Assembly: GCA_022826125.1 (NCBI GenBank)
Contig: JAJDVM010000188.1
Span: forward strand, 1-34,926
Length of the DNA stretch: 34,926 bases
Direction of reading: 5' to 3'
Origin: Defluviicoccus sp.
GTDB taxonomy: Bacteria; Pseudomonadota; Alphaproteobacteria; MPNO01
Part shown: positions 8,983 to 23,914 of the stretch, piece after piece
How the letters are laid out: every line of letters starts with the position of its first letter
Position numbering within the stretch: position 1 is the first letter of the stretch
Position numbers and translations under genes: made by a program
The notes under the pieces: model-generated
What the model was told of the DNA's origin: nothing
The model's input: only the letters and a program-made list of their open reading frames with translations
The model's database searches: none

Positions 8983-9074
8983 AGTCTTCGGCGGGTGCGC
9001 GAGTCATGGATACCGCGAACGGAAATTCGTGGCGGGATGCCATGCCCGGGGCATGTGCGAGGGGTGAATACCGC

Positions 9075-10220: not shown

Positions 10221-10865
10221 CGAGCGGAGCGCTCGCCGATAATCCCAGGACAGCCGGACCAGAGCCGGGAGGTCCGACGGCCGCCCGAGGGATTCCATCA
10301 ATATCCGCCCCGCGCGCGGTCCGCCGTCGGAAGAGAGTGCCGAGAGAAGGGCGGAAGGGAGAGGCCGTTCCGCCGGGTCCACGATAGCCCGGACCGCGGC
10401 TACCGGCAGCCCCGCCGCGGCGCCTATCCGCGCCACGGCGGGGCTTTCCATGTCGACGGCCGCCGCGCCCGACGACTTGCCAAGGGCTCTCTTGGCCTCA
10501 ACGTCTCCCACGGGTCCTTCCGTTCCCGCTATGGGCGCGCTGACGGTGTCGAGCGCCGGCCTCAACTCGGAGTCGAGGCGTGCCGTCCAATCCCCGTCGA
10601 CCTCGAACGTTTCGCCCGCGGTGCCGACGATCTCGCTCGCGATGACCACGGTCCCCGGGGAAAGTCCCGGCTGCAACGCTCCCGCCGTGCCGAAGCTGAG
10701 GAGTCCGGCCGCACCCTGGTCGACCAACGTCCGGGCAAGGGCCGCCGCCCGCGCCGTGGAGGCACGGCAGCACACAATCCGGATGTCTTTGTTCTTGCCG
10801 CCGCGCGCGGCCCTGGCTTCGGCCGGCAGGCCCGTGACGATCCCCAGCCGCCGTCCCGGGGTCAC
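10170..10865 (-). CDS. hpnG: Adenosylhopane nucleosidase/phosphorylase HpnG
   Basis: HpnG removes adenine from adenosylhopane to give ribosylhopane, the step after HpnH. The fold is that of purine nucleoside phosphorylase/MTA nucleosidase: LGIVTGLPAEA at the start, LLSFGTAGALQPGLSPGTVV around residues 55-75, and VDMESPAVARIGAAAGLPVAAVRAIVDPA around 140-170, where the ME(S) glutamate binds the ribose. The start is GTG 10865, which shares GTGA with the shc stop, so it is coupled to the cyclase; the longer open frame upstream is shadow of shc. The product is 231 residues. Its end overlaps hpnH by 51 bases. It is the last gene of the hpnD-shc-hpnG unit. Confidence 0.9.
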   Translation of the reverse strand: MTPGRRLGIVTGLPAEARAARGGKNKDIRIVCCRASTARAAALARTLVDQGAAGLLSFGTAGALQPGLSPGTVVIASEIVGTAGETFEVDGDWTARLDSELRPALDTVSAPIAGTEGPVGDVEAKRALGKSSGAAAVDMESPAVARIGAAAGLPVAAVRAIVDPAERPLPSALLSALSSDGGPRAGRILMESLGRPSDLPALVRLSWDYRRALRSLRRVAARSGFRFGFFA

Positions 10866-12856
10866 AATCCGAAGGGCGAGGTCTTCGCGTTGCCGCCGCG
10901 CAGGCGACGGTAGCGGGCGAGCGCCCAGACGGGAAAATAGGCGCTGTAGCCGTGATACTTGAGGTAGAAGACGCGGGGAAACCCCACCGCGTTGTAATAG
11001 TCTTCCCGCCAGGATCCGTCCTCGCGCGGCGCGTTGAGCAGGTATTCGATGCCGCGCCGGACCGCGGTGCCGTCGACCTCTCCCGCGGCCATCAGGCCGA
11101 GCACCGCCCAGGCCGTCTGACTCGGCGTGGAGGATTTCGCCTCGTCCCGGCGGTCGGGCCAATAGGTCGCCCCGTCCTCGCCCCAGCCGCCGTCGTCGCG
11201 CTGCCGTTTCTCAAGCCACCGGACGGCGCGCCGGATGTGCGGCGACGCCGGGTCCTCGCCGACCGCGTTGAGAGCCGTGAGCACGCTCCAGGTACCGTAG
11301 ACGTAGTTGGTCCCCCACCGCCCGTACCAGGAGCCGTCTTCCTCCTGCTCGCCAATCAGGAATTCGATGCCGCGCGCCACCGAAGGATTGTCGCGGGAGC
11401 GGCCGAGCTGAGCGAGCATCCCGACGCAGCGCGCCGTCACGTCCGACGTCGGGGGATCCAACAGCGCTCCATGGTCGGCGAAGGGAATGCTGTCGAGGTA
11501 GTGCTTGTTGTTGTCGACGTCGAAAGAGCCCCAACCGCCGTTGGAGCTCTGCATGCCGACGATCCATTCCGCGCCGCGCCGGACGGGTTCGTCGACGCCG
11601 GTTCGTCGCGCACGGTCTATCGCCATCACGACGACCGCCGTGTCGTCGGTGTCGGGATAGTAATCGTTGCGGTATTCGAACGCCCAGCCTCCGGGAGCGA
11701 GCCCCGGACGGGTGCGGGCCCAGTCGCCCTGTACGTCCGTGATCTGCTCGTTCACCAGCCATCCGGAGGCGCGCTCCGCCGCGGCTTCGTTATCCGCCCC
11801 GCCCGCTTCCATCAGCGCGTGCGCCGCGAGCGCGGTATCCCAAACCGGAGACAGGCAGGGCTGGCAGAATGTTTGCCCTCTCTGCGCGACAAGGAGCTTC
11901 CCGATCGCGCTAAGGGCGTCGGCATAGCGCGGATCGTCTTTCCCGTAACCCAGCGTATGAAACGCCATGACCGCGTTGGCCATCGCGGGGAATATGCCGC
12001 CGAGTCCGTGATCTCCGTTGAGGCGATCTCCGATGAAGTCGACCGCCCGGTCCAGCGCGCGCCGACGGAGCGCGGGAGGACTCAACGGGGCGAGCAGCCG
12101 CAGCGCGCGGTCGACCGCGAGAAAGACGGTATCGAGGAGTCCGCCGGTCGGTTTGACCAGCGGGGGACACCGTGTCCACGGGTCTTCACGGAAAAGCTCC
12201 GCGACGGTCACGCGTCGCGGATTGGCCGCATCCGGCCTTCGGTCGAGAAGTACCAGAAGGGGTACGATCACCGTGCGGGACCAATAGGACATCTTGTCGA
12301 GATGGATGGGGAACCAGCGCGGCAGCAGCATGATTTCGAGCGGCATAACCGGCACCGCCCGCCACGGCATCTGTCCGAACAGCGCCAGCGTGATGCGGGT
12401 AAATACGTTGCATTGCGCCGCGCCGCCTCGTTCGAGGATCGCCTCGCGCGCCCGCCGCATATGAGGGGCTCCGGGATCGTCGCCCACGCATTTGAGCGCG
12501 AAATAGGCCTTTACCGATGCGCTTACGTCCGCGTCGCCCCCGTGGAACAGAGGCCAGCCGCCATCCCTTCCCTGGCGGTCCTGGATGTAGTCGGCGAGCC
12601 GGCTCTCCAGGGCGGGGTCGATGTCGTCGATGAAGTGCTCGAGAAGGATGTACTCGGCCGGAATCGTCACATCGGCTTCGAGGGGGAACACCCAGTGACC
12701 GTCGGAAGACTGCCTTCCGCGAAGCGACGCTCCGGCCGCTTCGATGACACGGTCGACGCGCGATTCCAGCTTTTCCGTGCGGTCCGGTCCGGTCGGGGCG
12801 ATGGGCACGCTTGCCGAGCTTTCAACGGCAACGCGTTCCCATGTGGAACCTTCCAC
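10862..12856 (-). CDS. shc: Squalene-hopene cyclase
   Basis: A 664-residue class II triterpene cyclase that folds squalene into hopene/hopanol at the inner membrane. The acid motif DTDD is at residues 402-405, after FEYRNDYYP. Several QW-type repeats are visible, for example RQSSDGHWVFPLE (48-60), QDRQGRDGGWPLF (92-104), QSSNGGWGSFD, EQEEDGSWYGRWG and KRQRDDGGWGEDG, which make the double alpha-barrel. The membrane-channel region PPTSDVTARCVGM and the C-terminal FPRVFYLKYHGYSAYFPVWALARY are typical of bacterial SHC. The length is normal for the family. It lies about 100 bases after hpnD and overlaps hpnG by four bases (GTGA). Also named hpnF. Confidence 0.97.
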   Translation of the reverse strand: MEGSTWERVAVESSASVPIAPTGPDRTEKLESRVDRVIEAAGASLRGRQSSDGHWVFPLEADVTIPAEYILLEHFIDDIDPALESRLADYIQDRQGRDGGWPLFHGGDADVSASVKAYFALKCVGDDPGAPHMRRAREAILERGGAAQCNVFTRITLALFGQMPWRAVPVMPLEIMLLPRWFPIHLDKMSYWSRTVIVPLLVLLDRRPDAANPRRVTVAELFREDPWTRCPPLVKPTGGLLDTVFLAVDRALRLLAPLSPPALRRRALDRAVDFIGDRLNGDHGLGGIFPAMANAVMAFHTLGYGKDDPRYADALSAIGKLLVAQRGQTFCQPCLSPVWDTALAAHALMEAGGADNEAAAERASGWLVNEQITDVQGDWARTRPGLAPGGWAFEYRNDYYPDTDDTAVVVMAIDRARRTGVDEPVRRGAEWIVGMQSSNGGWGSFDVDNNKHYLDSIPFADHGALLDPPTSDVTARCVGMLAQLGRSRDNPSVARGIEFLIGEQEEDGSWYGRWGTNYVYGTWSVLTALNAVGEDPASPHIRRAVRWLEKRQRDDGGWGEDGATYWPDRRDEAKSSTPSQTAWAVLGLMAAGEVDGTAVRRGIEYLLNAPREDGSWREDYYNAVGFPRVFYLKYHGYSAYFPVWALARYRRLRGGNAKTSPFGL

Positions 12857-12957
12857 CGAGCCCCTCCGATCGCTGCCGTTCTTCCGAACCGGCTACGCGA
12901 CCGGCCCGTGGGAAAAACTAGTTTCGACTCTCCGGTTTGTCCAGAATCCGCGGTGAA

Positions 12958-13830
12958 TCAGGCGAATACGCCGTGTCGAAGCGCAATCAGAATCTTCTCC
13001 GGCCTGGAGATTCGGACGGGGATGTCGAGCCTGGTCCAGCCCCGCTTCTCCAACGCGTCCAGAAGCCGCCGGTAGTGCACCATCATCACCACCGCCGGCC
13101 GAAGCGCGCGGCGGTCGCACTCCTGCAGCGCCGCCGTCGCACCTGCGAACCTGTCTTTCGCGATCCGCGCCAGCGCGTCGCACACCTTCGGGATCGCGGG
13201 GTGGCGTAGAACGTCACGCGGCTCCGAGGCCTCTATGCCCGCCCGGTCGAGCAATTCCTGCGGCAGGTAGAGCCTGTCGCGTTCCGCGTCTTCCAGCAGA
13301 TCCCGCAGGATATTGGTGAGCTGGAGCGCCGTTCCGAGCGCGAGGGCGAACGCTTCGGCGTGCGCGCCCCGGGCACCGAAGGCGCGTATCGAGAGAAGAC
13401 CCACCGCACCGGCCACCCGATGGCAATAGAGCTCCAGCTCGTCCAGGTCCGGCGCCTTCAGGCCGTCACCGAGGTCCATCTGCATGCCGTCGATCACCGC
13501 GAGGAAATCCTCGCGGCGCATGCCGAAGCGGCGGACCGGTTCGGCGAGGGCGCGGGCGGTCAGCGTTTCGGGATTGCCGGCGTAGAGCGCGCCGATCTCT
13601 TCCCGCCACTTGTCGAGGCGCCGCCGCTTGTCGTCCGGCGAGCCTTCGTCGTCGGCGATGTCGTCGACCTCGCGGCAAAACGCATAGATCGCGAACATCG
13701 CTTCTCGTCGGGCCCGCGGCAGGAAGCGCATCGCCCAATAGAACGAAGTGCCGGAAGCTACGGTGACGGCGCGGACATGCGCCTTCGCCTCGTCGTTGGC
13801 CACGACCCCACGCTCGGGTCTGTTCCGCAT
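12958..13830 (-). CDS. hpnD: Presqualene diphosphate synthase HpnD
   Basis: HpnD condenses two farnesyl diphosphates head to head into presqualene diphosphate, which HpnC takes further. From ATG 13830 the protein has 290 residues; a TTG at 13839 is an alternative, and neither has a strong ribosome site. Family marks are SGTSFYWAMRFLPRARREAMFAIYAFCREVDDIADD with the first aspartate motif at about 56-60, then YCHRVAGAVGLLS near 135-147, and NILRDLLEDAERDRLYLPQE with the second motif at Asp177-Asp181. It leads the hpnD-shc-hpnG unit. The usual downstream neighbour hpnE, the FAD enzyme converting hydroxysqualene to squalene, is missing: shc follows after 101 bases holding no gene. Confidence 0.93.
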   Translation of the reverse strand: MRNRPERGVVANDEAKAHVRAVTVASGTSFYWAMRFLPRARREAMFAIYAFCREVDDIADDEGSPDDKRRRLDKWREEIGALYAGNPETLTARALAEPVRRFGMRREDFLAVIDGMQMDLGDGLKAPDLDELELYCHRVAGAVGLLSIRAFGARGAHAEAFALALGTALQLTNILRDLLEDAERDRLYLPQELLDRAGIEASEPRDVLRHPAIPKVCDALARIAKDRFAGATAALQECDRRALRPAVVMMVHYRRLLDALEKRGWTRLDIPVRISRPEKILIALRHGVFA

Positions 13831-13871
13831 GAAGCACAACTATCGCGGCACGGAGCGCCGCGCAACCGACG

Positions 13872-13959: not shown

Positions 13960-14193
13960 TTGCCCGTTCCTTACGACGAGCCGGGAAATATCCGGCACCA
14001 GACGCAGGTGGGTGCGCCTCCGGATGCCTACGCCACGGAGTTGGCGGACAGGCTGGGAGAGATTTTCGGGCGGGGGATCCACGATTTGGAAGGAGTTGTC
14101 GCCGCGCTCAACGAGGCAGGTCCCGCTCCGGAGGGCGCGGACAGGTGGACCGCCGAGGTCTTCGAGGCGGAGATGATCCGTCTCGGCCCGTAG
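13960..14193 (+). CDS. Small helical protein preceding a Rieske oxygenase (recombinase-like helix domain type)
   Basis: Seventy-seven residues starting at TTG 13960, chosen because CAGGAGG stands six bases upstream; the much longer frame through this region is antisense to hpnD. The protein begins PVPYDEPGNIRHQTQ, then has an amphipathic helix rich in Glu/Leu (YATELADRLGEIFG), a second around GIHDLEGVVAALNEAG and a third WTAEVFEAEMIRLGP. This pattern resembles the short proteins annotated with a recombinase-like helix domain that accompany Rieske ring-hydroxylating oxygenases; that is from memory. It is 9-21 bases from the Rieske gene. It may stabilise the oxygenase or help with its redox partner, but no function is established. 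It has no membrane segment or cysteine. Confidence 0.65.
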   Translation: MPVPYDEPGNIRHQTQVGAPPDAYATELADRLGEIFGRGIHDLEGVVAALNEAGPAPEGADRWTAEVFEAEMIRLGP

Positions 14194-14214
14194 CGGCGCA
14201 GGATGGAGATGGGT

Positions 14215-15252
14215 ATGTCGGCACATCATGACGCGGTGGATGCGCTCGTCGATCTCGGCGTCCGCAACCGCTGGTACCCGATCGCGTCGAGCTGGATGAT
14301 CCGCGACAAGCCGGTCGCGCTGATGCGCCTCGGCGAGCGTATCGTCGTCTGGCGCGACCGAGAGGGCGAGGTCCACGTGCTTGCCGACCGCTGCCCGCAT
14401 CGGGGCGCGCAACTCTCGAAGGGCTGGAACCTCGGCGACCGTCTGGCCTGCTGGTATCACGGGCTGGAGGTCGACGGCAGCGGCACCGTCCTCGCGATGC
14501 CCGCGATCGGCGACTGCCCCCTGGTCGGCACGCAGGCTGTGAAGCCCTATCCCGCCTTCGAGCACATGGGCGGGATTTTCGCCTATTTCGGCGATGAGCT
14601 GCATCCCGAGCCCGCGCCGTTCGACTATCCCGAGGAGCTCAACTCGCCGGAGTGGAGTGCGATCCTCTGCACCTCGCACTGGCGCTGCAACTATCGCTAC
14701 GCCATCGACAACGTCATGGATCCGATGCACGGCGCCTACCTGCACGCCGAGTCGCATTCCATGGGGCGCGGCGACAAGGACGCGCGGATGCGGATCCGCG
14801 ACACCGAGCACGGGTTGATATTCGAGAAGACCAATCAGCGCGGGGTCAATTTCGACTGGGTCGAATGGGCCGATACCGGCGCGCACTGGATGCGGCTGTC
14901 GATCCCCTACCAGAGCAACGCCGGACCGGGCGGTGCGTTCGGTATCGTCGGTTTCGTGACCCCGATCGACCGGGAGAATTGCCGGGTCTTCTTCTGGCGT
15001 ACCCGAAAGGTGGAAGGGTGGGAGCGCGAAGTCTGGCGCTTCATGTACAAGCACAAGCTGGAGACGCTGCACTGGGACGTGCTCGAGCAGGATCGGATCA
15101 TCCTCGAAGGCATGCCCAACGACGCCCGCGACCGCGAGTTCCTCTACCAGCACGACACCGGACTCGCGCGCATCCGGAGGCTGATCCAGGAGGAAGCCGA
15201 ACGCCAGGTCTCCGCCCTTACGGCGATCGAACCCGCCGCGGCCGCAGAATAG
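14215..15252 (+). CDS. Rieske non-heme iron oxygenase, catalytic alpha subunit
   Basis: A 345-residue ring-hydroxylating or demethylating oxygenase. ATG 14215 is preferred over 14203 because GGAG is six bases before it. The Rieske [2Fe-2S] ligands are Cys60 and His62 (CPH) and Cys79 and His82 (CWYH). The catalytic iron site follows in DNVMDPMHGAYLH: Asp165/Asp169, His172 and His177, with Asp293 in EQDRIILE as the likely third ligand. Length and motif spacing fit the single-component-alpha group (vanillate demethylase, phthalate-type) better than the alpha-beta dioxygenases, and no beta-subunit gene is present. No ferredoxin or reductase is encoded nearby, so electrons must come from elsewhere. 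It is the second gene of a seven-gene operon. Confidence 0.9.
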   Translation: MSAHHDAVDALVDLGVRNRWYPIASSWMIRDKPVALMRLGERIVVWRDREGEVHVLADRCPHRGAQLSKGWNLGDRLACWYHGLEVDGSGTVLAMPAIGDCPLVGTQAVKPYPAFEHMGGIFAYFGDELHPEPAPFDYPEELNSPEWSAILCTSHWRCNYRYAIDNVMDPMHGAYLHAESHSMGRGDKDARMRIRDTEHGLIFEKTNQRGVNFDWVEWADTGAHWMRLSIPYQSNAGPGGAFGIVGFVTPIDRENCRVFFWRTRKVEGWEREVWRFMYKHKLETLHWDVLEQDRIILEGMPNDARDREFLYQHDTGLARIRRLIQEEAERQVSALTAIEPAAAAE

Positions 15253-15266
15253 AAGGACGAGACTGG

Positions 15267-15779
15267 ATGAGCACCGAGACGGAAGCCGCCGCGCGCAACC
15301 TCGCGGACTGGATGGAGACCCGGATCGCACGGTACGAGACCCGGCGCTACGACTGGGACGCACTCAAGTTCCAGGCCGATTTCGATCCGAAATACCGGCG
15401 GGCGCAGATGCGTTATCTCGGCACCGGCGGCACCGGCGTGGCCGACGACTCCAACGCCGTGCCGTCCGAGCACTTCACCTTCTCGACCATGGTGCTTCCC
15501 CCGGGCTGCGAAGGCCCTCCGCACGTCCATGACGACGTGGAGGAAGTGTTCTTCATGCTTCGCGGGAAGATCAGGCTTACGCTCGAACAGGACGGCGAGA
15601 CGTTCGAGACCGAGCTCGGCGAGCGCGATCTGATCTCGGTGCCGCCCGGCGTCTATCGCGGCCTCGTCAACGAGGGCGAGGAGGAAGCGCTGATGTGCGT
15701 CATGCTGGGCGCCGCCAGGCCTCGCATTCCCACCTATCCGCCCGAACATCCTTTGGCGAAGATCAAGCGCAAGGCGTGA
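15267..15779 (+). CDS. Cupin-domain protein
   Basis: A 170-residue protein with an alpha-helical lead (about 1-50) and one cupin barrel (about 68-150). The first cupin motif is present as PPHVHDDVEEVFFMLRG with His86, His88 and Glu92/Glu93 as metal ligands. The second motif, normally P-x-G-x-x-H, reads PPGVYRG, with Arg131 where the last histidine ligand is expected, so the metal site may be three-coordinate. Single-domain cupins in catabolic operons include dioxygenases, isomerases and binding proteins; I cannot choose among them. It lies 14 bases after the Rieske gene, and its stop overlaps the next gene's GTG start (GTGA). Confidence 0.8.
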   Translation: MSTETEAAARNLADWMETRIARYETRRYDWDALKFQADFDPKYRRAQMRYLGTGGTGVADDSNAVPSEHFTFSTMVLPPGCEGPPHVHDDVEEVFFMLRGKIRLTLEQDGETFETELGERDLISVPPGVYRGLVNEGEEEALMCVMLGAARPRIPTYPPEHPLAKIKRKA

Positions 15780-16585
15780 CCCTCCCTCCGCTAGAGACCG
15801 TCAGGCGGAACGGCCGCGCCATCGCCTACCGTGCGGCCGGCCAGGGGCCGCCTCTGCTGTTGCTGCACGGGATCGGATCCGGCTCGGCGTCGTGGGAGGC
15901 GCAGTTCGACGGGCTTTCCGGGCGATTTCGGGTCATCGCCTGGGATACGCCCGGCTATGGGAGCTCGGACCCACTGCCCGGCGAGCGGCCGGAGTCCCGC
16001 GCCTACGGCGATGCGGTCGCCGACCTTCTCGACGGTCTGGAGCTTGAGAAGCTACATGTGCTGGGCCATTCCCTCGGCGGGTTGATCGCGGCCGCGTTCG
16101 CCGCCTGGCACCCCCGGCGACTGCTGAGCGTCACCCTGTCCGACGCCGCGGCGGGTTACCTGAACAGTCCGAAGGAACTTCGCGTCGACCGTCTGAACGC
16201 GCGGATCGAGGCGATGACCGCGCTCGGACCGGCGGAGGTCGCCAGGAGGCGGGCGCGCGAGGTCCTTTCGCCTTCGGCCTCCGAAGAAACCTACGAGAAA
16301 GTCTTCCGGGTACAGAGCAGGCTTCGGCCCGATGGATACGTCCAGGCGGCCCGGATGCTTCACAACTCCGACATCTTCGCGGACGCGGCTATGATCGCGG
16401 TGCCCGCGCTGGTGATGTACGGCAGCGAAGATACGGTGACGCCCGAGGCGATCGGTCGCGACATTGCCGCGGCGATAGGCGGAGCCCGCTACGTCACCCT
16501 CCAAGGGCTCGGGCATGCCAGCTATGTCGAGGGGCCGGAGGCATTCAACGCCGCTTTCACCGGTTTCCTCGACGGTCTGGAATGA
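15776..16585 (+). CDS. Alpha/beta hydrolase
   Basis: A 269-residue enzyme beginning at GTG 15776, which shares GTGA with the cupin stop and has AAGG just before it; the in-frame extension to 15695 is inside the cupin gene. The fold marks are complete: oxyanion segment LLLLHGIGSGSASW (27-40), WDTPGYGSSD, nucleophile elbow GHSLGG with Ser99, acid Asp219 in YGSEDTVTP and His247 in GLGHASYVEGPE. It has no signal peptide. In aromatic catabolism such proteins often cleave ring-fission products (C-C hydrolases) or enol-lactones, for example PcaD-like enzymes; which reaction applies here is not visible from sequence. It is translationally coupled within the operon. Confidence 0.88.
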   Translation: MTLPPLETVRRNGRAIAYRAAGQGPPLLLLHGIGSGSASWEAQFDGLSGRFRVIAWDTPGYGSSDPLPGERPESRAYGDAVADLLDGLELEKLHVLGHSLGGLIAAAFAAWHPRRLLSVTLSDAAAGYLNSPKELRVDRLNARIEAMTALGPAEVARRRAREVLSPSASEETYEKVFRVQSRLRPDGYVQAARMLHNSDIFADAAMIAVPALVMYGSEDTVTPEAIGRDIAAAIGGARYVTLQGLGHASYVEGPEAFNAAFTGFLDGLE

Positions 16586-16632
16586 GCGCCGGCCGCCGGC
16601 CGGGTCGGGCTGCGCAGGGATAGGACCGCGAG

Positions 16633-17427
16633 ATGGATCTCGGGCTTTCGGACAAGGTAGCGGTCGTCACCGGCGGGTCATCGGGCATCGGGCTGGCAGC
16701 GGCACGGATATTTCTCGAAGAGGGCGCCGGGGTCGCGATTTGCGGCAGGTCGGGGGACCGGCTGGCCGCGGCGGAGCGATCGCTCGCCGGGCCGCACGGC
16801 GCCGACCGCGTGCTCTCCGCGGCGTGCGACGTGCTCGACCCCGCGCAGGTGGCGGATTTTCGCGATCGCGTGGCGGAACGCTTCGGCCGTGCGGACATTC
16901 TCGTCGCCAACGCCGGGCAGGCGCGCCGCGGAGGGATCGAAGACCTCGGTGACGACGAATGGCGTGCCGAGCTCGACCTTAAATTCTTCTCGGTCCTGCA
17001 TCCCGCGCGCGCCTTTCTGCCGCTGCTGGAATCGGCCGCACCGTCCGCCATCGTCTGCACGAACGCCCTGCTGGCGCGGCGTCCCGAGCCCTGGCTGGCG
17101 GCGACCTCCGCCGCGCGGGCCGGGGTTCTCAACCTCGCCAAGACGATGAGCCGGGACTTCGCGCCCAAAGGAATCCGGGTCAACTCGATTCTGATCGGGC
17201 TGGTCGATTCGGGGCAGTGGAACCGCCGTTTCGAGCAGGGCGAGGCCGGCGGAAAGAGCAAGGAAGAATGGTTCGCCGAACTCGCCGCCGAGCGGGGAAT
17301 ACCGCTTGGCCGGCTGGGCGAAGCCGACGAGGCGGCGAGGGTGATGGTTTTTCTCGCCTCTCCGGCGGCGAGCTACCTGACCGGGGAAACGATCGAGATC
17401 GCGGGCGGGCAGGGGCACCATGTCTGA
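16633..17427 (+). CDS. SDR family protein with degenerate catalytic site
   Basis: A 264-residue Rossmann-fold protein of the short-chain dehydrogenase/reductase family. The cofactor part is intact: TGGSSGIG at 13-20, CDV near 65-67, and NAG at 93-95. The active site is unusual. In the stretch WLAATSAARAGVLNLAK (154-170) the places of the catalytic Tyr and Lys (YxxxK) are taken by Thr158 and Arg162, and the preceding serine position reads CTN. The C-terminal GETIEIAGGQ is typical of the family. It may use other residues, act on an easily reduced substrate, or not be a dehydrogenase at all. The ribosome site is AGGGATAGGA. Its stop overlaps the next gene's ATG by eight bases. Confidence 0.87.
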   Translation: MDLGLSDKVAVVTGGSSGIGLAAARIFLEEGAGVAICGRSGDRLAAAERSLAGPHGADRVLSAACDVLDPAQVADFRDRVAERFGRADILVANAGQARRGGIEDLGDDEWRAELDLKFFSVLHPARAFLPLLESAAPSAIVCTNALLARRPEPWLAATSAARAGVLNLAKTMSRDFAPKGIRVNSILIGLVDSGQWNRRFEQGEAGGKSKEEWFAELAAERGIPLGRLGEADEAARVMVFLASPAASYLTGETIEIAGGQGHHV

Positions 17428-19066
17428 GCGGACTTCCGCCGGCGACCTCGTCGCCGCGTTTCTCGAAGCGGCCGGCGTCGACACCGCCTTCGGGGTGATC
17501 TCGATCCACAACATGCCCATGCTCGATGCGATCGGGCAGCGCAATCGCATCCGCTTCGTGCCGGCGCGGGGCGAAGCCGGCGCGGTCAACATGGCCGACG
17601 CGAATGCGCGCGTCTCGGGCGGGCTCGGCGTCGCGTTCACCAGCACCGGGACCGGGGCCGGCAATGCCTGCGGCGCGCTGGTCGAGGCGCAGACCGCGGG
17701 CACGCCGGTCCTTCACCTGACGGGCCAGATCGAAACCGAATACCTCGACCAGGAGCGCGGTTACATCCACGAGGCGCGCGACCAGTTGACCATGCTGCGC
17801 GGAGCGTCCAAGGCGGCATTCAGGGTAAGAACCGTATCTGACCTGCCCGGGACGCTGCGCGAGGCGGTGCGCATGGCGCAGAGTCCGCCCGCCGGTCCGG
17901 TCAGCGTCGAGATACCGGTCGACATTCAGGAATCCTCGCTCGACAGGCCGGCATCGCTCGCGCCGGTCGCGCCGTTGCGTCCGGAACCGGACGGAGCGGA
18001 GCTCGATCTCTTGGCCGATGCGCTGGCGGATTCGCATAGGCCGATGCTCTGGCTCGGCGGCGGCGCGCGCGGCGCGTCGGGGGAGGCCCGCATGCTCGTC
18101 GGGCTCGGCTTCGGCGCGGTCACCAGCATCCACGGCCGGGGCGCGGTCCCGGAAGGCGACCGCATGTCTCTCGGGGCGTACAACTTCCAGCCGCCGGTCG
18201 AGGCGTTCTACGGGACCTGCGATGCGATGCTGGTAGTGGGTTCCCGGCTGCGCAGCAACGAGACGCTGCAATACAAGCTCGCCCTGCCGCGCCCGCTCTA
18301 CCGGATCGACGCGGACCCCAGGGCGGACGGGCGGTCGTTCGCCAACGAAATCTTCGTTTGCGGCGACGCGGCGAAGGCAATGGCGGGTCTCGCGGACCGG
18401 CTCCGTGGCCGAATGTCGGTGGATTCGTCGCTCGCCGCGGATATCGAAAAGGCGCGGAAGGACGCCGAGGCCGCGCTCCGCGGCACCCTCGGACCCTACG
18501 AACGGCTCATGGACGAGCTCCAGGACGCGGTTCCCGACGACGTGGTGTGGGTACGCGACATCACGCTGTCCAACAGCACATGGGGCAACCGCGCGCCGCG
18601 TCTTTCAGGAACGCGCAACGGCGTGCATGCGGTGGGCGGCGGGATCGGACAGGCGCTGCCGATGGCAATCGGCGCCGCGCTCGCCGCCGAGGGCCGGAAG
18701 ACCGTCGCGCTGGCGGGCGACGGTGGGCTCGCTCTTTCCCTCGGCGAGATTTCCACCATGGTCCAGGAGCGCGCGGACATCGCGCTGATCGTCATGAACG
18801 ACGGCGGCTACGGCGTAATCAGGAATATCCAGGACCGAAAGTTCGCCGGCCGGCGGCTCTATGCCGACATCGTGCTTCCCGACCTGGCCACGCTGGCCGG
18901 CGGTCTCGGCCTGCCTTTCCGGCGCGTCGCGGACACCGCCGGGATGCGGTCCGCCATCGACTGGGCGATCTCGGCGGACGGCCCGGCGATGGTCGAGATC
19001 GACATGAACGCGGTCGGCCCGTTCGCGGTCCCATTCGCCGGCCCGCCCGTCCGCCCGAAGGAATAG
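17420..19066 (+). CDS. Thiamine diphosphate-dependent enzyme (acetolactate synthase/benzoylformate decarboxylase-like)
   Basis: A 548-residue three-domain ThDP enzyme. The N-terminal pyrimidine domain holds the activating glutamate Glu52 (PARGEAGAVNMADA). The central domain follows at about 190-330, and the C-terminal pyrophosphate domain has the ThDP/Mg motif starting GDGG at 434-437 and ending N460-D461 (VMNDGGYGVIRN). Relatives decarboxylate 2-oxo acids or join the resulting carbanion to another carbonyl compound. The FAD-linked features of true acetolactate synthases and a small regulatory subunit are absent, so a catabolic 2-oxo acid decarboxylase or lyase is more likely. It overlaps the SDR gene by eight bases and precedes the dehydrogenase by three, clearly within the operon. 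Confidence 0.9.
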   Translation: MSERTSAGDLVAAFLEAAGVDTAFGVISIHNMPMLDAIGQRNRIRFVPARGEAGAVNMADANARVSGGLGVAFTSTGTGAGNACGALVEAQTAGTPVLHLTGQIETEYLDQERGYIHEARDQLTMLRGASKAAFRVRTVSDLPGTLREAVRMAQSPPAGPVSVEIPVDIQESSLDRPASLAPVAPLRPEPDGAELDLLADALADSHRPMLWLGGGARGASGEARMLVGLGFGAVTSIHGRGAVPEGDRMSLGAYNFQPPVEAFYGTCDAMLVVGSRLRSNETLQYKLALPRPLYRIDADPRADGRSFANEIFVCGDAAKAMAGLADRLRGRMSVDSSLAADIEKARKDAEAALRGTLGPYERLMDELQDAVPDDVVWVRDITLSNSTWGNRAPRLSGTRNGVHAVGGGIGQALPMAIGAALAAEGRKTVALAGDGGLALSLGEISTMVQERADIALIVMNDGGYGVIRNIQDRKFAGRRLYADIVLPDLATLAGGLGLPFRRVADTAGMRSAIDWAISADGPAMVEIDMNAVGPFAVPFAGPPVRPKE

Positions 19067-19069
19067 GCC

Positions 19070-19867
19070 ATGCTGAACGTCGTCCTGATCGGCCGCGGCG
19101 CCATCGCCACCGAGGTGCTGAAACATATCCGTCCCGGCGGCGGGGCAAGCGTCACCGGCGTTATCGTCCGCCCCGAACGAATTGCCGAGGCGCGCGCGCG
19201 CCTCCCGTCGACGATCGAGGTGGCGAGCGCCATCGGGGATTTCGCGACGGCGCCGCGACTGATCGCCGAATGCGCCGGGCATGGGGCGGTTGCCGAGTTC
19301 GGCGAAGAGGCGCTGAGGCGCGGCATCGACTTCCTGGTCATTTCCATCGGCGCGCTCGCCGACGCGGCTCTCCGCACACGGCTCGAGGCGGCGGCGGAAG
19401 CCGGCGGGGGGAAGCTCGTTCTGCCGGCCGGCGCGGTCGCGGGCGCCGATGCGTTGGCGGCGGCTCGCATCGGCGGCCTGGAAAGGGTCGTCTATACCTC
19501 GCGCAAGCCACCGGGCGCGTGGCGCGGAACCCCGGCGGAAAAGGCGCACGATCTCGACGCGCTGGCCGAGCCGACCGTGCTGTTCGAGGGTGCTGCCGAC
19601 GAGGCGGCGACCCTCTATCCCCAGAACGCGAACGTGGCCGCGACCATCGCGCTCGCCGGCGCCGGGTTCGACCGCACCGACGTGCGGCTGATCGCGGATC
19701 CGTCCGCGGGCGGCAATATCCACGATGTCCGCGTGGAGGGGATGTTCGGGGCGTTCGACATCGAGGTGCGCGGCAGGCCGCTCCCCGACAATCCCAAGAC
19801 CTCGACGCTGGCGGCTCACAGCGTGGTCGCGGAGATCATGCGGCGCGCCGCGGCGGTGGAGATCTGA
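19070..19867 (+). CDS. L-aspartate dehydrogenase family protein (NadX-like)
   Basis: A 265-residue NAD(P)-dependent dehydrogenase with the nucleotide-binding IGRGAIA loop at 7-13, an ECAGHGAVAEFGEEAL segment around 65-80, and the aspartate-dehydrogenase C-terminal part: YPQNANVAATIALAGAG, then GNIHDVRVEG with the probable catalytic His, and NPKTSTLAAHS. Known members convert L-aspartate to iminosuccinate or run reductive amination. Biosynthetic nadX usually lies with nadA/nadC; here it is the last gene of an oxygenase-hydrolase-ThDP operon, three bases after the ThDP gene (AAGGA ribosome site). It therefore probably acts on an amino acid or imine made by the pathway, or on a related semialdehyde. 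nadX is avoided as a name for that reason. Confidence 0.85.
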   Translation: MLNVVLIGRGAIATEVLKHIRPGGGASVTGVIVRPERIAEARARLPSTIEVASAIGDFATAPRLIAECAGHGAVAEFGEEALRRGIDFLVISIGALADAALRTRLEAAAEAGGGKLVLPAGAVAGADALAAARIGGLERVVYTSRKPPGAWRGTPAEKAHDLDALAEPTVLFEGAADEAATLYPQNANVAATIALAGAGFDRTDVRLIADPSAGGNIHDVRVEGMFGAFDIEVRGRPLPDNPKTSTLAAHSVVAEIMRRAAAVEI

Positions 19868-19919: not shown

Positions 19920-20759
19920 TCAACTCAACCCGGCGAGGAAGGTGGCGACGGCCTCCGCCGTCTCCGCCGGCTTCTCGATGAACGGGATGTGCCCTCCGCC
20001 GGAAATTTCGGCATAGACCGCGCCGGGGATCGCGTCGGCGATGATCTTCGAGAACTTCGCCGGGATGAAATAGTCGTTGTCGCCGGTGAGCACGAGGGTC
20101 GGGCAGGCGACGCTCCGGATCTTCTCGGTCCAGAGCGGCTGGTCGTCCTGGCCGGGAAGGCGGCGGCCCCACGACAGGATGGAGTCGAGGAAGGCGGTGT
20201 AGAGGGCGGGGTCGTTGGCGCGGACGTTCTCCTGGTTGGCCCGCATGATGGCGAGCCCTTCGTCGGTGTCCATGAACTCCCGGGTCATGGTCGAGAGTCC
20301 CATGAAGTCGGCGAGCTCCTCGCCCATGCCGATCTTCGCGATGATCTTCTTGCGCAGCGAGAAGTTCATCTCCATCGCCCGGTCGAGCTCCGAGAACCCG
20401 CCGACCACGATCATCGAGCGCACCAGGTCCGGGTGGCGGACCGCCATCGCCTGGGCGGTGGAGCCGCCAAGGGAGGAGCCCAGGATGTCGACGCTCTTCC
20501 AGCCCGCCTCGCGCGCGAGGGCCGCGAAGTCGTCGGCCCAGAGTTCCGCCGAATAGACGACCTCCCCGGGACCGTCCTTCCGGGATTGCCCCACGCCGCG
20601 CGGATCGACGAGGACCGTCATGCAGCTCTCGCGGAGCAGCGGCTCGCCCAGCCGGTAGTAACGATGGTCCATACCGAGGCCGGGGAAGAGCATCAAAGGG
20701 TGGCCGTTCCCCTTTGCCTCGTACCAGATCTCGGTTCCGTTCACCGATGCTGTCGGCAT
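19920..20759 (-). CDS. Alpha/beta hydrolase
   Basis: A 279-residue enzyme with ATG 20759 behind GAGGAGGAA, eleven bases after the molybdenum hydroxylase stop, so it belongs to that operon. Marks are FPGLGMDHRYY (oxyanion region), VDPRGVGQS, the nucleophile elbow GSSLGG with Ser96, Asp229 (TGDNDYFIP) and His257 (GGGHIPFIEKP). The overall pattern resembles 3-oxoadipate enol-lactonase and haloperoxidase-type hydrolases. There is no signal peptide. It is different in sequence from the hydrolase at 15776, so it is not a duplicate. It converges with the NadX-like gene across a 52-base gap holding short inverted GTCTC/GAGAC repeats but no U-tract terminator. Confidence 0.88.
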   Translation of the reverse strand: MPTASVNGTEIWYEAKGNGHPLMLFPGLGMDHRYYRLGEPLLRESCMTVLVDPRGVGQSRKDGPGEVVYSAELWADDFAALAREAGWKSVDILGSSLGGSTAQAMAVRHPDLVRSMIVVGGFSELDRAMEMNFSLRKKIIAKIGMGEELADFMGLSTMTREFMDTDEGLAIMRANQENVRANDPALYTAFLDSILSWGRRLPGQDDQPLWTEKIRSVACPTLVLTGDNDYFIPAKFSKIIADAIPGAVYAEISGGGHIPFIEKPAETAEAVATFLAGLS

Positions 20760-20770
20760 GACTTTCCTCC

Positions 20771-23122
20771 TCAGCCCGCCGCCGCCCGCAACGCCTGCCA
20801 TACGCGGTGCGGGCTCGCCGGCAGCGGCAATTCCTTCACTCCTCGGGCCGCGAGCGCGTCGAGGACGGCGAGGATCACGGCGGGGTACGCGCCTCCGTTG
20901 CCGGCTTCGCCGCATCCCTTCACGCCGAGCGGGTTGGTCGTGCACGGGACCGGGTGGGTGGTAAAGTCGATCGCCGCCATGTGGTCGGCGCGCGGCATCG
21001 CGTAGTCCATGTACGAGCCGGTGACGAGCTGGCCGTCGTCGTCGTAGACGGTGTTCTCCAGCAGCACCTGACCCAGACCCTGGGCAATGCCGCCATGCAC
21101 CTGGCCCTCCACGATCAGGGGGTTCAGCACGGTGCCGAAATCGTCGACCACGGTATAGCGGTCGATTGCGGTCTCGCCGGTGTCGGGATCGATTTCCACT
21201 TCGCAGACGTGGCAACCGTTGGGGAAGCTGATCGGACTCGTGTCGTGCGAGCACTTTGCGCCGAGCCCGTCCGCGAGATCGTCGGGAAGGGCCGCGTTCC
21301 CGCGCGCCCGATCCGCGAGGCTCATGATGTCGATCGACCGGTCGGTGCCGGCGACCCGGAACACCCCGCCGGCGAACTCCATATCCTCGATTGCGGCCTC
21401 CAGGATATGGCCGGCGATCTTCTTGCCCCGTTCGATCACCGCCTCGCTCGCCTCCAGGATGGCGCCGCTCGACGCGATCGCCGAGCGCGATCCGCCGGAC
21501 CCGCCCGCGCCGGGGCTCATCTCGTCCGAATCGTGCTGGATCATGCGGATTCGCTCGAACGGCACGCCGAGCTTCTCGCTCAGCACCTGGGCGAACGGCG
21601 TTGCATGTCCCATACCGAAATCGCAGGTCCCCGTGACTAGCGTCACCGTGCCGTCGGCCTCGAAGCGGATGTCGGCGAGCTCGGTCCCGGGTGCGGCGGT
21701 GGTCTCCAGATAGGGCGCGATGCCGAGCCCGCGGAGCTTGCCGGACGCTTCGCTGGCGCGGCGTCTTTCGGCGAAGCCCCCGGTATCGGCGCGCGCCATG
21801 GCCTCGTCCATGATCGCCTCGAAATCGCCCGAATCGTAAGTCAGCCCGACCGGCGTCTCGAACGGCATCTGGTCCGGCCCGACGAGGTTGCGCCGGCGCA
21901 GCTCGATCCGGTCGATCCCGGTCTCGGCGGCCGCCTTGTCGATCAGCAGTTCGAGGAAATATTTCGACTCCGGCCGCCCGGCGCCGCGATAGGGGCCGGT
22001 CGGCACGGTGTTCGTGAAGACGCACTTGGCGCCGTATGAGAACAGCGGCGTCTTGTAGACGCTGATGATGTTGCGGCTCACCACCATGGTGACCGGCCAC
22101 GGACCCATCGCGGTGAGATAGGCGCCCATGTCGCCGAGCGCGTCCACCTTGAGCGCGAGGAAGTTGCCGTTCTCGTCGAGCGCCAGCGCGAGGTCGACCG
22201 TCATCGCCCGGCCCTGGTGGTCGGAGAGGAAGCTCTCCGAACGGTCGGCGCACCATTTTACCGGGCGGCCCAGCCGGCGCGCCGCGTACATGACGCAGAT
22301 CGCCTCGCTGTAGGCCGCGCCCTTCATTCCGAAGGAGCCGCCGATATCGTCGCTGATCACCCGGACGTTCTCGGGCGGCACCGAGAATATCGCGTTGGCG
22401 AGGGTTGCGCGGTAGCCGGTTACGCCCTGGCTGCCGACGTGGAGCGTGAACTTCTCCGCCGCCGCGTCGTATTGCGCGAGCGCCGCGCGCGGCTCCATCG
22501 CATTGACCACCATGCGGGTATTGTCGAGCCGGATGCGGGTGACGTGGTGGGCGTCCGCGATCGCCCTGTCGACCGCCTCTTCGTCGCCCATGTGGAAGTC
22601 GAGGAAGACGTTGTCCGGCGAGGACTCCCACAGCCGGGGAGCGGCGTCCTCGAGCGCGTGTTCGACGGAGGCGGCGACGGGGAGGGACGAGACCTCGAAG
22701 GGAATCGACTCCACCGCGTCGCGCGCTTCGGCGAGGGTCTTCGCGACGACCACCGCCACCGGATCGCCGACATGGCGGACTCGACCGACGGCAAGCGCCG
22801 GGCGCGGCGGCACGTTGGGCGACGACCCGTCCCGGTTCTTCATCGGCACCGGGCAGGGGATGTGCCCGATGCCGTCCGCTTCGAGGTCGGCGCCCGTGTA
22901 AACCGCGAGCACGCCGGGCGCGTCGGCGACGGCGGAGACGTCGAGCGCCGCGATCTCGCCGTGGGCCGTCGTCGAGCGCAGGAAGACGGCGTAGGCCTGG
23001 CCGGGCGCGTTGCAGTCGTCGGTGTAGCGCCCGCCTCCCGAGAGGAGGCGGGGATCCTCGGTCCTGGGAACCGGCTGCCCGACCCCGAATTTCAGCACTT
23101 CCTGTCCGTTGTCTCCGGCCAT
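20771..23122 (-). CDS. Xanthine dehydrogenase family molybdopterin-binding (large) subunit
   Basis: A 783-residue large subunit of a molybdenum hydroxylase (CO dehydrogenase/xanthine oxidase family). It begins with VGQPVPRTEDPRLLSGGGRYTDD, typical of the CoxL-like branch, and has DDIGGSFGMKG near 280, the TGPYRGAGRPES loop near 395, PGAGGSGGSRS near 555, and the catalytic glutamate Glu739 in GVKGCGEAGNGG. The loop is not the AYxCSFR signature of genuine CO dehydrogenase, so this hydroxylates an organic substrate such as an N-heterocycle, aldehyde or related compound. The FAD (medium) and [2Fe-2S] (small) subunits that normally accompany it are not adjacent. It lies between the cysteine hydrolase gene and the alpha/beta hydrolase gene, same strand. 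Confidence 0.93.
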   Translation of the reverse strand: MAGDNGQEVLKFGVGQPVPRTEDPRLLSGGGRYTDDCNAPGQAYAVFLRSTTAHGEIAALDVSAVADAPGVLAVYTGADLEADGIGHIPCPVPMKNRDGSSPNVPPRPALAVGRVRHVGDPVAVVVAKTLAEARDAVESIPFEVSSLPVAASVEHALEDAAPRLWESSPDNVFLDFHMGDEEAVDRAIADAHHVTRIRLDNTRMVVNAMEPRAALAQYDAAAEKFTLHVGSQGVTGYRATLANAIFSVPPENVRVISDDIGGSFGMKGAAYSEAICVMYAARRLGRPVKWCADRSESFLSDHQGRAMTVDLALALDENGNFLALKVDALGDMGAYLTAMGPWPVTMVVSRNIISVYKTPLFSYGAKCVFTNTVPTGPYRGAGRPESKYFLELLIDKAAAETGIDRIELRRRNLVGPDQMPFETPVGLTYDSGDFEAIMDEAMARADTGGFAERRRASEASGKLRGLGIAPYLETTAAPGTELADIRFEADGTVTLVTGTCDFGMGHATPFAQVLSEKLGVPFERIRMIQHDSDEMSPGAGGSGGSRSAIASSGAILEASEAVIERGKKIAGHILEAAIEDMEFAGGVFRVAGTDRSIDIMSLADRARGNAALPDDLADGLGAKCSHDTSPISFPNGCHVCEVEIDPDTGETAIDRYTVVDDFGTVLNPLIVEGQVHGGIAQGLGQVLLENTVYDDDGQLVTGSYMDYAMPRADHMAAIDFTTHPVPCTTNPLGVKGCGEAGNGGAYPAVILAVLDALAARGVKELPLPASPHRVWQALRAAAG

Positions 23123-23203
23123 CTCGTTCCATTCGTCGTTGTGTCGAAACGGGCCGGGCGGCCCGTGGACCGCCCGGCGGTGTCGCGTTTCGGGCGATCG
23201 TCC

Positions 23204-23914
23204 CTATTCGGCGGCGGCGTTCTCGTTGCGGCGGGAGGAGGCTTCCAGCCTCGCGATCAGCTCGTCGGTCTGCTGCACGTCGCCGAAATAGAGATAGAAA
23301 TTGCCGAGCGCCGCGGCGTGCTCGCCGTCGCTCATCGTTGCGCATCCGTCGGAGACCATCAGCGAGCGGTAGTTGAGCATCATCGCGTCGCGCGCCGTGG
23401 ATTCGCAGCACACATTGGTCGCCACCCCGGTGACGATGATGGTCTCGATCCCGTGGTCGCGCAGCACGATTTCGATATTGGACGACCCCTGGATGAAAGC
23501 GCTGTAACGCCGCTTGACGACGATCTCGTCCTCGTCGCGGACATCGAGGGTGGGCCAGAGCTGGAAGGCCCGCGAATCGCGCTGCATGGAATTCAGCCGC
23601 CGCTCGCCTTTCTCCGGCGTATAGCGCTCATGCGCGACCGACCAGCTGTCGAGCGACTCCTGCGTCGCGAGGTTCTGCAGCCAGATCACCAGCCCCCCGG
23701 CGTTCCGCACCGCTTCGGCGAGGCGGTTCACGTTGGGGACGATCTCCTGCGCCACGGGCGCCGCGCCGAGCTGGCCCTCCTCCATGAAATAAATCTGCAT
23801 GTCGACCACCACCAGGGCGGTCTTCGGGCCGTCGAAGGTCTCGCAGGTGTGGGGCCGGCCCTGGCGCTCGACCATACGGTCGACATACTCCTTGGGCATC
23901 TCGAAAGGGTGCAT
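23204..23914 (-). CDS. Cysteine hydrolase, isochorismatase-like family
   Basis: A 236-residue enzyme with the catalytic triad of the family: Asp38 (VVDMQIYF), Lys134 (VVKRRYSAF) and Cys169 (VTGVATNVCCESTARDA). The extended N terminus and the sequence around Cys169 are like N-carbamoylsarcosine amidase and ureidoacrylate amidohydrolase (RutB) rather than true isochorismatase, so amide or carbamoyl hydrolysis is likely. GGAGGCG stands before the ATG at 23914. It is the first gene of a minus-strand unit with the molybdenum hydroxylase and alpha/beta hydrolase, which suggests a pathway that oxidises and then opens or deamidates an N-containing ring. That pathway is inference. Confidence 0.88.
   Translation of the reverse strand: MHPFEMPKEYVDRMVERQGRPHTCETFDGPKTALVVVDMQIYFMEEGQLGAAPVAQEIVPNVNRLAEAVRNAGGLVIWLQNLATQESLDSWSVAHERYTPEKGERRLNSMQRDSRAFQLWPTLDVRDEDEIVVKRRYSAFIQGSSNIEIVLRDHGIETIIVTGVATNVCCESTARDAMMLNYRSLMVSDGCATMSDGEHAAALGNFYLYFGDVQQTDELIARLEASSRRNENAAAE

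What the first reader, a model, noticed from the sequence alone, without database searches (positions are those of the whole stretch)
13960..19867. Seven-gene catabolic operon of unknown substrate
A small helix protein, Rieske oxygenase, cupin, alpha/beta hydrolase, atypical SDR, ThDP enzyme and NadX-like dehydrogenase lie on one strand, mostly with overlapping or nearly touching ends (4-base GTGA overlap, 8-base overlap, 3-base gap). The set suggests oxygenation, hydrolysis, 2-oxo acid cleavage and an amino or imino acid step, as for an N-containing aromatic or phenolic compound. I cannot match this combination to a named pathway. It lacks a dedicated ferredoxin or reductase and a local regulator.
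Basis: partly seen in the sequence, partly recalled or inferred. Interest (0 to 1): 0.75.

Follow-up and report, generated by a model that had tools for sequence, protein, structure and literature searches.

The report
Likely kynurenate-degradation operon, partly split up
Seven neighbouring bacterial genes belong to a widely conserved but apparently unnamed pathway that breaks down a nitrogen-containing aromatic compound, most likely kynurenic acid (a breakdown product of tryptophan), whose degradation was described in the 1960s but for which I found no published genes.

Summary
In 299 sampled Pseudomonadota genomes the ThDP family occurs in 9; the same 9 are the only ones with an HTH_62 match below E 1e-10, and all carry the cupin or its two-domain form. 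Around 27 of 28 further non-redundant ThDP genes (alpha-, beta-, gammaproteobacteria, one Streptomyces plasmid) other cluster genes recur, often with parts the window lacks: second SDR, extradiol (VOC) dioxygenase, aldehyde dehydrogenase, IclR regulator, in some ferredoxin and reductase. So the missing regulator and redox partners are local. The parts fit the recalled kynurenate pathway step by step: dihydroxylation, diol dehydrogenation, extradiol cleavage, side-chain reduction, 2-oxo acid decarboxylation, aldehyde oxidation, picolinate ring opening to iminosuccinate, handled by AspDH. Substrate and all reactions are inferred; nothing was assayed. Tryptophan-dioxygenase genes are mostly unlinked. 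This genome may hold a reduced or scattered version: its best VOC is about 42% identical and no close aldehyde dehydrogenase was found.

The parts
13960..14193 (+). HTH_62 small helical protein (77 aa, TTG start; GTG at 13963 possible), companion of the Rieske oxygenase
   Evidence: Pfam PF20552; AlphaFold model: extended N-terminus plus three helices, mean pLDDT 75.7; only 2 matches in the own genome, both directly upstream of a Rieske gene
14203..15252 (+). Rieske oxygenase alpha subunit, VanA_C type, 349 aa; proposed ring hydroxylase
   Evidence: PF00355 + PF19112; iron-site motifs; groups with beta-, gamma- and other alphaproteobacterial cluster Rieske proteins in a FastTree tree of 55 sequences
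15267..15779 (+). Cupin, 170 aa; proposed ring-opening or hydration step
   Evidence: PF07883; 63-95% identical to 14 relatives, HxH..EE kept, place of the last metal His (recalled motif) occupied by invariant R, preceded by Y
15776..16585 (+). Alpha/beta hydrolase (GTG start), PcaD-like; proposed C-C or enamide hydrolysis
   Evidence: PF00561; NCBIfam PcaD models match far below their cut-offs; GxSxG present
16633..17427 (+). SDR of family NF005468 with YxxxK replaced by T and R; proposed side-chain reductase
   Evidence: NF005468 368 bits; alignment A2
17420..19066 (+). ThDP-dependent enzyme of family NF005470, 548 aa; proposed 2-oxo acid decarboxylase
   Evidence: NF005470 807 bits; GDG-N motif and Glu
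19070..19867 (+). NadX-type L-aspartate dehydrogenase, 265 aa; proposed iminosuccinate/aspartate step
   Evidence: PF01958, NF009828; matches solved AspDH-type chains 2dc1, 1h2h, 1j5p, with NIH aligned in the two alignments shown

Best explanation
The seven genes are the local part of a conserved pathway for aerobic breakdown of kynurenate (4-hydroxyquinoline-2-carboxylate) or a very close quinoline-2-carboxylate. Proposed route: (1) Rieske oxygenase with ferredoxin and reductase makes the 7,8-dihydrodiol; (2) the second SDR (not in the window) oxidises it to 7,8-dihydroxykynurenate; (3) the VOC extradiol dioxygenase (not in the window) cleaves C8-C8a to a picolinate with a 3'-carboxy-3'-oxopropenyl side chain; (4) the atypical SDR reduces the side-chain double bond; (5) the ThDP enzyme decarboxylates the 2-oxo acid; (6) the aldehyde dehydrogenase (not in the window) makes 5-(2'-carboxyethyl)-4,6-dihydroxypicolinate; (7) cupin and alpha/beta hydrolase open the ring and split it, chemically to glutarate plus 2-aminofumarate (= iminosuccinate); (8) AspDH interconverts iminosuccinate and aspartate/oxaloacetate. 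The small HTH_62 protein serves the Rieske gene as subunit or regulator. Shown: gene families, intact motifs, conserved clustering and co-occurrence. Inferred: every reaction and the substrate. In this organism the missing steps would have to be supplied elsewhere in the genome or differ.
For: Co-occurrence of ThDP, HTH_62 (E below 1e-10) and cupin in the same 9 of 299 genomes. Of 29 non-redundant ThDP loci with at least 6 kb on each side, window included: AspDH 27, hydrolase 26, Rieske 25, cupin or two-domain cupin 25, SDR1 24, HTH_62 23, VOC 22, IclR 22, SDR2 21, ALDH 19. VOC proteins of 9 of 9 aligned clusters keep H141, H196 and E247, which I read as the iron site. VOC-SDR1-ThDP-AspDH-ALDH run in that order in Paracoccus, Nitratireductor and Pseudosulfitobacter. 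Two pathway intermediates, 5-(3'-carboxy-3'-oxopropyl)- and 5-(2'-carboxyethyl)-4,6-dihydroxypicolinate, are named in print (passages in PMC11364965, PMC10543884, PMC12795275); going from one to the other is a 2-oxo acid decarboxylation plus an aldehyde oxidation. PMC5610271 (passages) says a degradation pathway was suggested in Pseudomonas fluorescens and cites Taniuchi and Hayaishi 1963. Molybdenum hydroxylase genes lie beside cluster Rieske or VOC genes in two betaproteobacteria and beside 42%-identical VOCs in two alphaproteobacterial MAGs, as expected if N-heteroaromatics such as quinaldate feed in.
Against: No assay, expression or growth data. Tryptophan dioxygenase (PF03301) occurs in 12 of 34 cluster-bearing genomes or records and in 14 of 17 genomes of family f13 with a ThDP match (G208 and G238 are in both sets), but lies near the cluster only in G208 (13 kb, unrelated genes between) and at 28 kb in G585; draft contigs limit this test. 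The SDR1 lacks the usual catalytic Tyr and Lys and is absent from 4 cluster loci of the 29, all betaproteobacterial (L014, L018, L023, L025), and not seen in the shorter loci L017, L019, L032, L034, so step 4 is weak. The Vibrio nigripulchritudo plasmid cluster has no Rieske, SDR2 or HTH_62 in 31.6 kb. In the own genome the nearest VOCs reach only about 42% and no aldehyde dehydrogenase passed E 1e-120. The cupin's reaction is unknown; its model is only moderately confident and matches many cupins. Step 7 products are my chemistry; a 1961 title (reference list of PMC11354673) speaks of glutamate synthesis from kynurenate, which is not a direct product of my scheme. The pathway steps beyond the named intermediates are recalled.
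Confidence: 0.5

Rival explanations
1. Same type of pathway for another bicyclic N-heteroaromatic carboxylate, for example quinaldate, xanthurenate or a plant or microbial quinoline, with kynurenate at most a side substrate.
For: Molybdenum hydroxylase genes next to VOC or Rieske genes and flavin monooxygenases next to some clusters (PRK08294-type in G208; others) suggest several entry routes. Two VOC subtypes only 23-29% identical could mean different catechols.
Against: ThDP, AspDH and ALDH are shared by clusters of both VOC subtypes, which argues for one common later route.
Confidence: 0.22
2. Carbocyclic amino-acid-type substrate (phenylalanine-like side chain): 2,3-dihydroxylation, extradiol cleavage, and a meta-cleavage hydrolase that releases aspartate, which AspDH then uses.
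For: The hydrolase could be a meta-cleavage-product hydrolase (2-hydroxy-6-oxo-7-methylocta-2,4-dienoate hydrolase 2d0d and 1iun among its PDB hits); explains AspDH directly.
Against: Gives no role to ThDP, ALDH and SDR1. No hydratase or aldolase of the usual lower route was named inside the annotated clusters (gene tables incomplete). Hydrolase scores higher with PcaD models than with BphD.
Confidence: 0.12
3. The window set is a decayed or repurposed remnant: in Defluviicoccus-like bacteria the trimmed seven genes act on a different compound and no longer form the full pathway.
For: The three Defluviicoccus loci with 6 kb flanks (L009, L010, L011) and the window all lack SDR2, VOC, ALDH and IclR nearby; no ALDH at E 1e-120 in these four genomes.
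Against: Motifs intact, high conservation (cupin 94-95% in two Defluviicoccus relatives, 63-70% in twelve others), same gene order in four relatives (L009, L010, L011, and L027 as far as it reaches), and an HTH_62-Rieske-SDR2 set on own contig C150.
Confidence: 0.13

Closest known systems
Bacterial kynurenate degradation (Taniuchi and Hayaishi 1963, seen only as a citation; step and enzyme names recalled)
   Same: Needs hydroxylase, dihydrodiol dehydrogenase, extradiol dioxygenase, 2-oxo acid decarboxylation and aldehyde oxidation on a picolinate side chain; the conserved cluster has a candidate for each.
   Different: I found no genes assigned to it in the papers searched; the window copy lacks three of the candidates; ring-opening enzymes and AspDH step are my proposal.
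Lumichrome (lum) pathway of Nocardioides simplex (PMC12746152; outline and passages read)
   Same: N-heteroaromatic breakdown with Rieske oxygenase, ThDP-dependent decarboxylase, extradiol dioxygenase and a cupin (LumY, a hydratase there).
   Different: Two-subunit ThDP enzyme acting on a ring carboxylate, alpha/beta Rieske enzyme, P450 and hydrolytic pyrimidine-ring steps; 'aspartate dehydrogenase' has 0 occurrences in that paper; HTH_62 was not looked for there.
Phenylpropionate/biphenyl-type meta-cleavage operons (recalled)
   Same: Rieske oxygenase, cis-diol SDR, VOC dioxygenase, alpha/beta hydrolase.
   Different: Those continue with hydratase and aldolase; here ThDP, ALDH, AspDH and cupin stand in their place.
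Pseudomonas aeruginosa PA3504-PA3511 (recalled, not checked)
   Same: Recalled order ALDH, AspDH, ThDP, SDR, IclR, hydrolase, cupin, SDR matches the betaproteobacterial clusters.
   Different: Sequence not searched here; full-text search for six of these locus tags found no paper holding two of them.

Membership tests
Kynurenate degradation pathway | Multicomponent kynurenate 7,8-hydroxylase | tested here: inconclusive
   Rieske oxygenase present in window and in 25 of 29 loci; substrate not testable here
Kynurenate degradation pathway | 7,8-dihydrodiol dehydrogenase gene | tested here: inconclusive
   SDR2 in 21 of 29 loci, not in the window; 53% match beside HTH_62 and Rieske on own contig C150
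Kynurenate degradation pathway | Extradiol ring-cleaving dioxygenase gene | tested here: inconclusive
   VOC in 22 of 29 loci, conserved H, H, E in 9 of 9 aligned; not in the window, own genome best about 42%
Kynurenate degradation pathway | 2-oxo acid decarboxylase and aldehyde dehydrogenase genes | tested here: inconclusive
   ThDP enzyme present; ALDH in 19 of 29 loci but no own-genome match at E 1e-120
Kynurenate degradation pathway | Growth on or turnover of kynurenate | not testable with these tools
   No wet-lab data
Kynurenate degradation pathway | Linkage to tryptophan/kynurenine genes (supporting, not defining) | tested here: not met
   Near the cluster in G208 only (13 kb, unrelated genes between) and at 28 kb in G585
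Rieske non-heme iron oxygenase (VanA_C type) | CxH-CxxH cluster motif, mononuclear-iron motif, Pfam above cut-off | tested here: met
NadX-type L-aspartate dehydrogenase | Both Pfam domains above cut-off, NIH motif | tested here: met
Classical SDR | Catalytic YxxxK | tested here: not met
   Replaced by invariant T158 and R162 in 10 of 10; glycine-rich nucleotide-binding motif kept
meta-cleavage operon with hydratase/aldolase lower route | 2-hydroxypentadienoate hydratase and aldolase genes | tested here: inconclusive
   None named so inside the annotated clusters; that gene table is stated to be incomplete

The most novel reading that the evidence does not exclude
This is the gene set behind the kynurenate pathway described in the 1960s, spread widely through Proteobacteria and into Actinomycetota, partly on plasmids, with a so far undescribed ring-opening step (cupin plus hydrolase giving iminosuccinate, captured by AspDH), an SDR that reduces a side-chain double bond without the usual Tyr-Lys pair, and HTH_62 as a dedicated small partner protein of one Rieske subfamily.
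Probability: 0.42. Interest if true: 0.8.

Novelty: new variant of a known kind. Interest (0 to 1): 0.62.

Why it matters
Kynurenic acid is a tryptophan metabolite with signalling roles in animals, and its bacterial breakdown has been known biochemically for sixty years. I saw no paper naming genes for it in ten searches whose listings were capped (open-access PMC papers only). If the reading holds, enzymes that I recall as lacking sequences get candidate genes, the capacity can be predicted from genomes (soil, marine and host-associated bacteria), and a long-standing question becomes a single growth-and-knockout experiment. Even if the substrate differs, a conserved pathway of about ten genes, for which I found no name in the models and papers searched, is defined here with a testable order of reactions.

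Tried and rejected
Riboflavin/lumichrome pathway: considered because Rieske, ThDP and cupin co-occur in PMC12746152; rejected as identity because the enzymes differ in kind. Homarine: the search listing showed nothing that fits (15 of 14,966 listed). Ordinary meta-cleavage (phenylpropionate type): leaves ThDP, AspDH and ALDH without a role.

Linkage to tryptophan dioxygenase: tested in 34 and 17 genomes or records, overlapping in G208 and G238; one close case (G208) and one at 28 kb (G585), so not used as support. A tblastn of the G208 gene over the loci then held found it in no cluster locus other than L071; contig lengths of six unclear hits differ from those of the cluster contigs. The XDH-like gene at window 20774-23122 is nearest to CO-dehydrogenase-type models, each below its cut-off, and only 27% identical to the cluster-linked XDH, so I do not count it as part.

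Rows dropped: six gammaproteobacterial ThDP hits at about 29-34% identity (L028-L031, L033, L035) fell under my 42% limit and show no cluster genes apart from generic hydrolase or XDH hits. L042 (Variovorax SRS16, ThDP 48%) has none of the other genes at my limits and is kept in the 29 as a miss. L039 is the second, partial set on pNK84 and is kept. Loci with under 6 kb on either side, L044 (same plasmid as L039) and near-duplicates at 90% or more were left out of the 29. Presence means a tblastn match above a family-specific identity limit anywhere in the stretch held, so stretches differ in length.

Of the 17 family f13 genomes with a ThDP match (15 over the cut-off), 14 were fetched; G208 and G238 had been fetched before and G409 (weak match) was not. 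In those fourteen: VOC, hydrolase and SDR1 14, Rieske and SDR2 12, ALDH 12, AspDH 11, HTH_62 11, cupin 2, two-domain cupin 6; L114 and L115 are truncated. The family is unnamed; I take it for Rhodobacteraceae from its likeness to Paracoccus and Pseudosulfitobacter.

HTH_62 fold search gave no significant match. Cupin fold search gave many cupins, no function. P. aeruginosa locus tags: no paper.

Full report
Observation. Families: HTH_62, Rieske/VanA_C, Cupin_2, alpha/beta hydrolase, SDR NF005468, ThDP enzyme NF005470 and NadX-type AspDH. Motifs of the Rieske, ThDP, AspDH and hydrolase proteins are intact. The window lies in a draft genome of 5.87 Mb in 377 contigs with 8% estimated contamination, so genes on other contigs are not certain to be from the same organism. 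Its nearest relatives among the loci are Defluviicoccus MAGs (ThDP 78-88% identical). The genome has 80 Rieske-domain matches.

Conservation. A scan for the ThDP protein in genome contigs gave 27 loci, and a tblastn search of plasmids 29 records at E 1e-60. I read 15 annotated regions with gene tables, two of them overlapping on pNK84, and one Streptomyces plasmid stretch without a gene table. The same genes recur in alpha-, beta- and gammaproteobacteria and in Streptomyces chartreusis. The fullest set, as in Caballeronia sp. NK8 pNK83, is ferredoxin, HTH_62, Rieske, SDR2, cupin, hydrolase, IclR, SDR1, ThDP, AspDH, ALDH, VOC dioxygenase, FAD-dependent reductase and MFS transporter. Paracoccus, Nitratireductor and Pseudosulfitobacter have an ABC transporter instead and add flavodoxin and a pentapeptide-repeat-type protein. 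Of 29 non-redundant loci with at least 6 kb on each side of ThDP, window included: AspDH 27, hydrolase 26, Rieske 25, SDR1 24, HTH_62 23, VOC 22, IclR 22, SDR2 21, small cupin 21, two-domain cupin 4 (never both), ALDH 19, reductase 11, ferredoxin 7. The IclR count uses a loose limit.

Co-occurrence. In an even draw of 299 Pseudomonadota genomes, own genome included, the ThDP family is in 9. HTH_62 matches at E below 1e-10 are in exactly those 9; weaker matches are in 11 others, five of them over the Pfam cut-off (20 of 299 in all). Cupin matches at E of 1e-19 or better are in the same 9 plus one more, G139 (12 of 299 at E 1e-10); in G004, G059, G208 and G238 they are the two-domain form as judged by frame length. 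AspDH (PF01958) is in all 9 and in 21 others. The chance of two sets of 9 coinciding is about 2e-17 if genomes were independent, which related genomes are not. In eight of the nine, HTH_62 lies on the same contig as ThDP within 13 kb; in G004 the two are on different contigs, the ThDP contig being 4.4 kb.

What the window lacks. SDR2, VOC, ALDH, IclR, ferredoxin and reductase are not found around the cluster of the window or of its Defluviicoccus relatives L009-L011 at the limits. In the own genome, contig C150 carries HTH_62, a Rieske gene (49%) and an SDR2 (53%) in a row; C177 carries two VOC genes at 41-42% followed by a Rieske gene. No aldehyde dehydrogenase reached E 1e-120 against the Caballeronia one in G000 or in G299-G301; three other genomes had 42-43% matches. 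In two Defluviicoccus relatives a VOC, HTH_62 and a Rieske gene lie together (L082/L098 and L084; the L084 VOC stretch reads through one TGA). So the pathway may be split over the genome, or altered.

Protein-level facts. VOC proteins keep two His and one Glu in 9 of 9, which I read as the iron site, and form two subtypes 23-29% identical. SDR1 keeps the glycine-rich motif but has invariant T and R where Y and K belong. The cupin keeps HxH..EE and has invariant R at the place of the last ligand of the recalled motif; it is 63-95% identical over 14 relatives. In a midpoint-rooted FastTree tree of 55 Rieske sequences the window protein groups with its Defluviicoccus relatives, then L012 and L020, then beta- and gammaproteobacterial cluster Rieskes; own-genome C150 paralogues lie outside that group, and the family f13/Paracoccus-type cluster Rieskes branch deeper still, so cluster Rieskes are not one exclusive clade (support values not read).

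Mechanism. The recalled kynurenate route is: 7,8-dihydroxylation, dehydrogenation, 8,8a extradiol cleavage, reduction of the propenyl side chain, decarboxylation, and aldehyde oxidation to 5-(2'-carboxyethyl)-4,6-dihydroxypicolinate. Papers name 7,8-dihydroxykynurenate and the 3'-carboxy-3'-oxopropyl compound (PMC11364965, passage) and the 2'-carboxyethyl compound (PMC10543884, PMC12795275, PMC13188826, PMC12007202, passages); these are metabolite listings, not proof of the route. PMC5610271 (passages) states that a degradation pathway was suggested in P. fluorescens. Each step has a candidate gene, and ring opening of a 4,6-dihydroxypicolinate carrying a 2-carboxylate would leave 2-aminofumarate, the tautomer of iminosuccinate, which is the AspDH substrate. 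That is the strongest single argument for a quinoline-2-carboxylate, and it is chemical inference. Molybdenum hydroxylase genes next to the second Rieske/ThDP/VOC set on Caballeronia pNK84 and next to the Rieske gene in L018, and next to VOC genes in G307 and G302, fit N-heteroaromatic feeding. The pNK84 one scores best with 4-hydroxybenzoyl-CoA reductase, then 6-hydroxypseudooxynicotine dehydrogenase, a CO dehydrogenase and quinoline 2-oxidoreductase among solved structures, so it does not single out quinaldate.

Tests against. Tryptophan dioxygenase is not generally linked; in G208 it lies 13 kb away beside a kynureninase gene but with unrelated genes between. SDR1 is missing from four betaproteobacterial cluster loci of the 29 and is not seen in four shorter ones. 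The Vibrio nigripulchritudo cluster shows no Rieske, SDR2 or HTH_62. AspDH is missing from one of twelve untruncated family f13 loci. One ThDP gene at 48% (L042) stands without the cluster. The HTH_62 model has no significant structural match and its role is open.

Literature. Ten searches of the open-access library, with capped listings, showed no paper that assigns genes to kynurenate degradation or describes this cluster. I saw search listings, and the outline or passages of PMC12746152 and passages of the other papers named here plus PMC11354673, PMC13151070 and PMC3534580. Subscription papers are not covered, so absence is not proof.

Verdict. Real, conserved and functionally coherent; kynurenate is the best single guess at about one in two.

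Noticed in passing
own genome (G000): 80 Rieske-domain matches in a 5.87 Mb draft genome, which looks like an unusually oxygenase-rich bacterium.
   Followed up: no
G000 contig C150, locus L096 6335-8422: Second HTH_62-Rieske-SDR2 set; both HTH_62 matches of the genome sit directly upstream of a Rieske gene.
   Followed up: partly
L097 5817-10457 and L099 73-4699; L044 39391-44232: A VOC dioxygenase gene next to the three genes of a molybdenum hydroxylase, in two alphaproteobacterial MAGs and on Caballeronia pNK84.
   Followed up: partly
L044 14268-14895 and 35785-36412 (pNK84): Ferredoxin and HTH_62 genes with the same protein accessions are present twice on the plasmid, each pair followed by a Rieske gene; a second ThDP and VOC gene lie with the second copy.
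   Followed up: no
L022, L040, L045, L046, L068 and others: The small cupin and a two-domain cupin of about 315 aa do not occur together among the 29 loci, as if one replaces the other.
   Followed up: partly
L048 7318-7734: A RidA-family gene (imine/enamine deaminase type, as recalled) between the Rieske and a VanB-type reductase gene in Caballeronia sp. M1242.
   Followed up: no
L071 17900-19864 (G208): Phenol 2-monooxygenase-like flavoprotein (PRK08294, 969 bits) directly before the hydrolase gene of the cluster, perhaps a second entry route from a hydroxylated substrate.
   Followed up: partly
window 19923-23914, - strand: Convergent set of a PcaD-like hydrolase, a CO-dehydrogenase-type molybdenum subunit and an isochorismatase-like hydrolase.
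   Followed up: partly
window 9006-13839: Hopanoid genes upstream: HpnH on +, squalene-hopene cyclase and HpnD on -.
   Followed up: no
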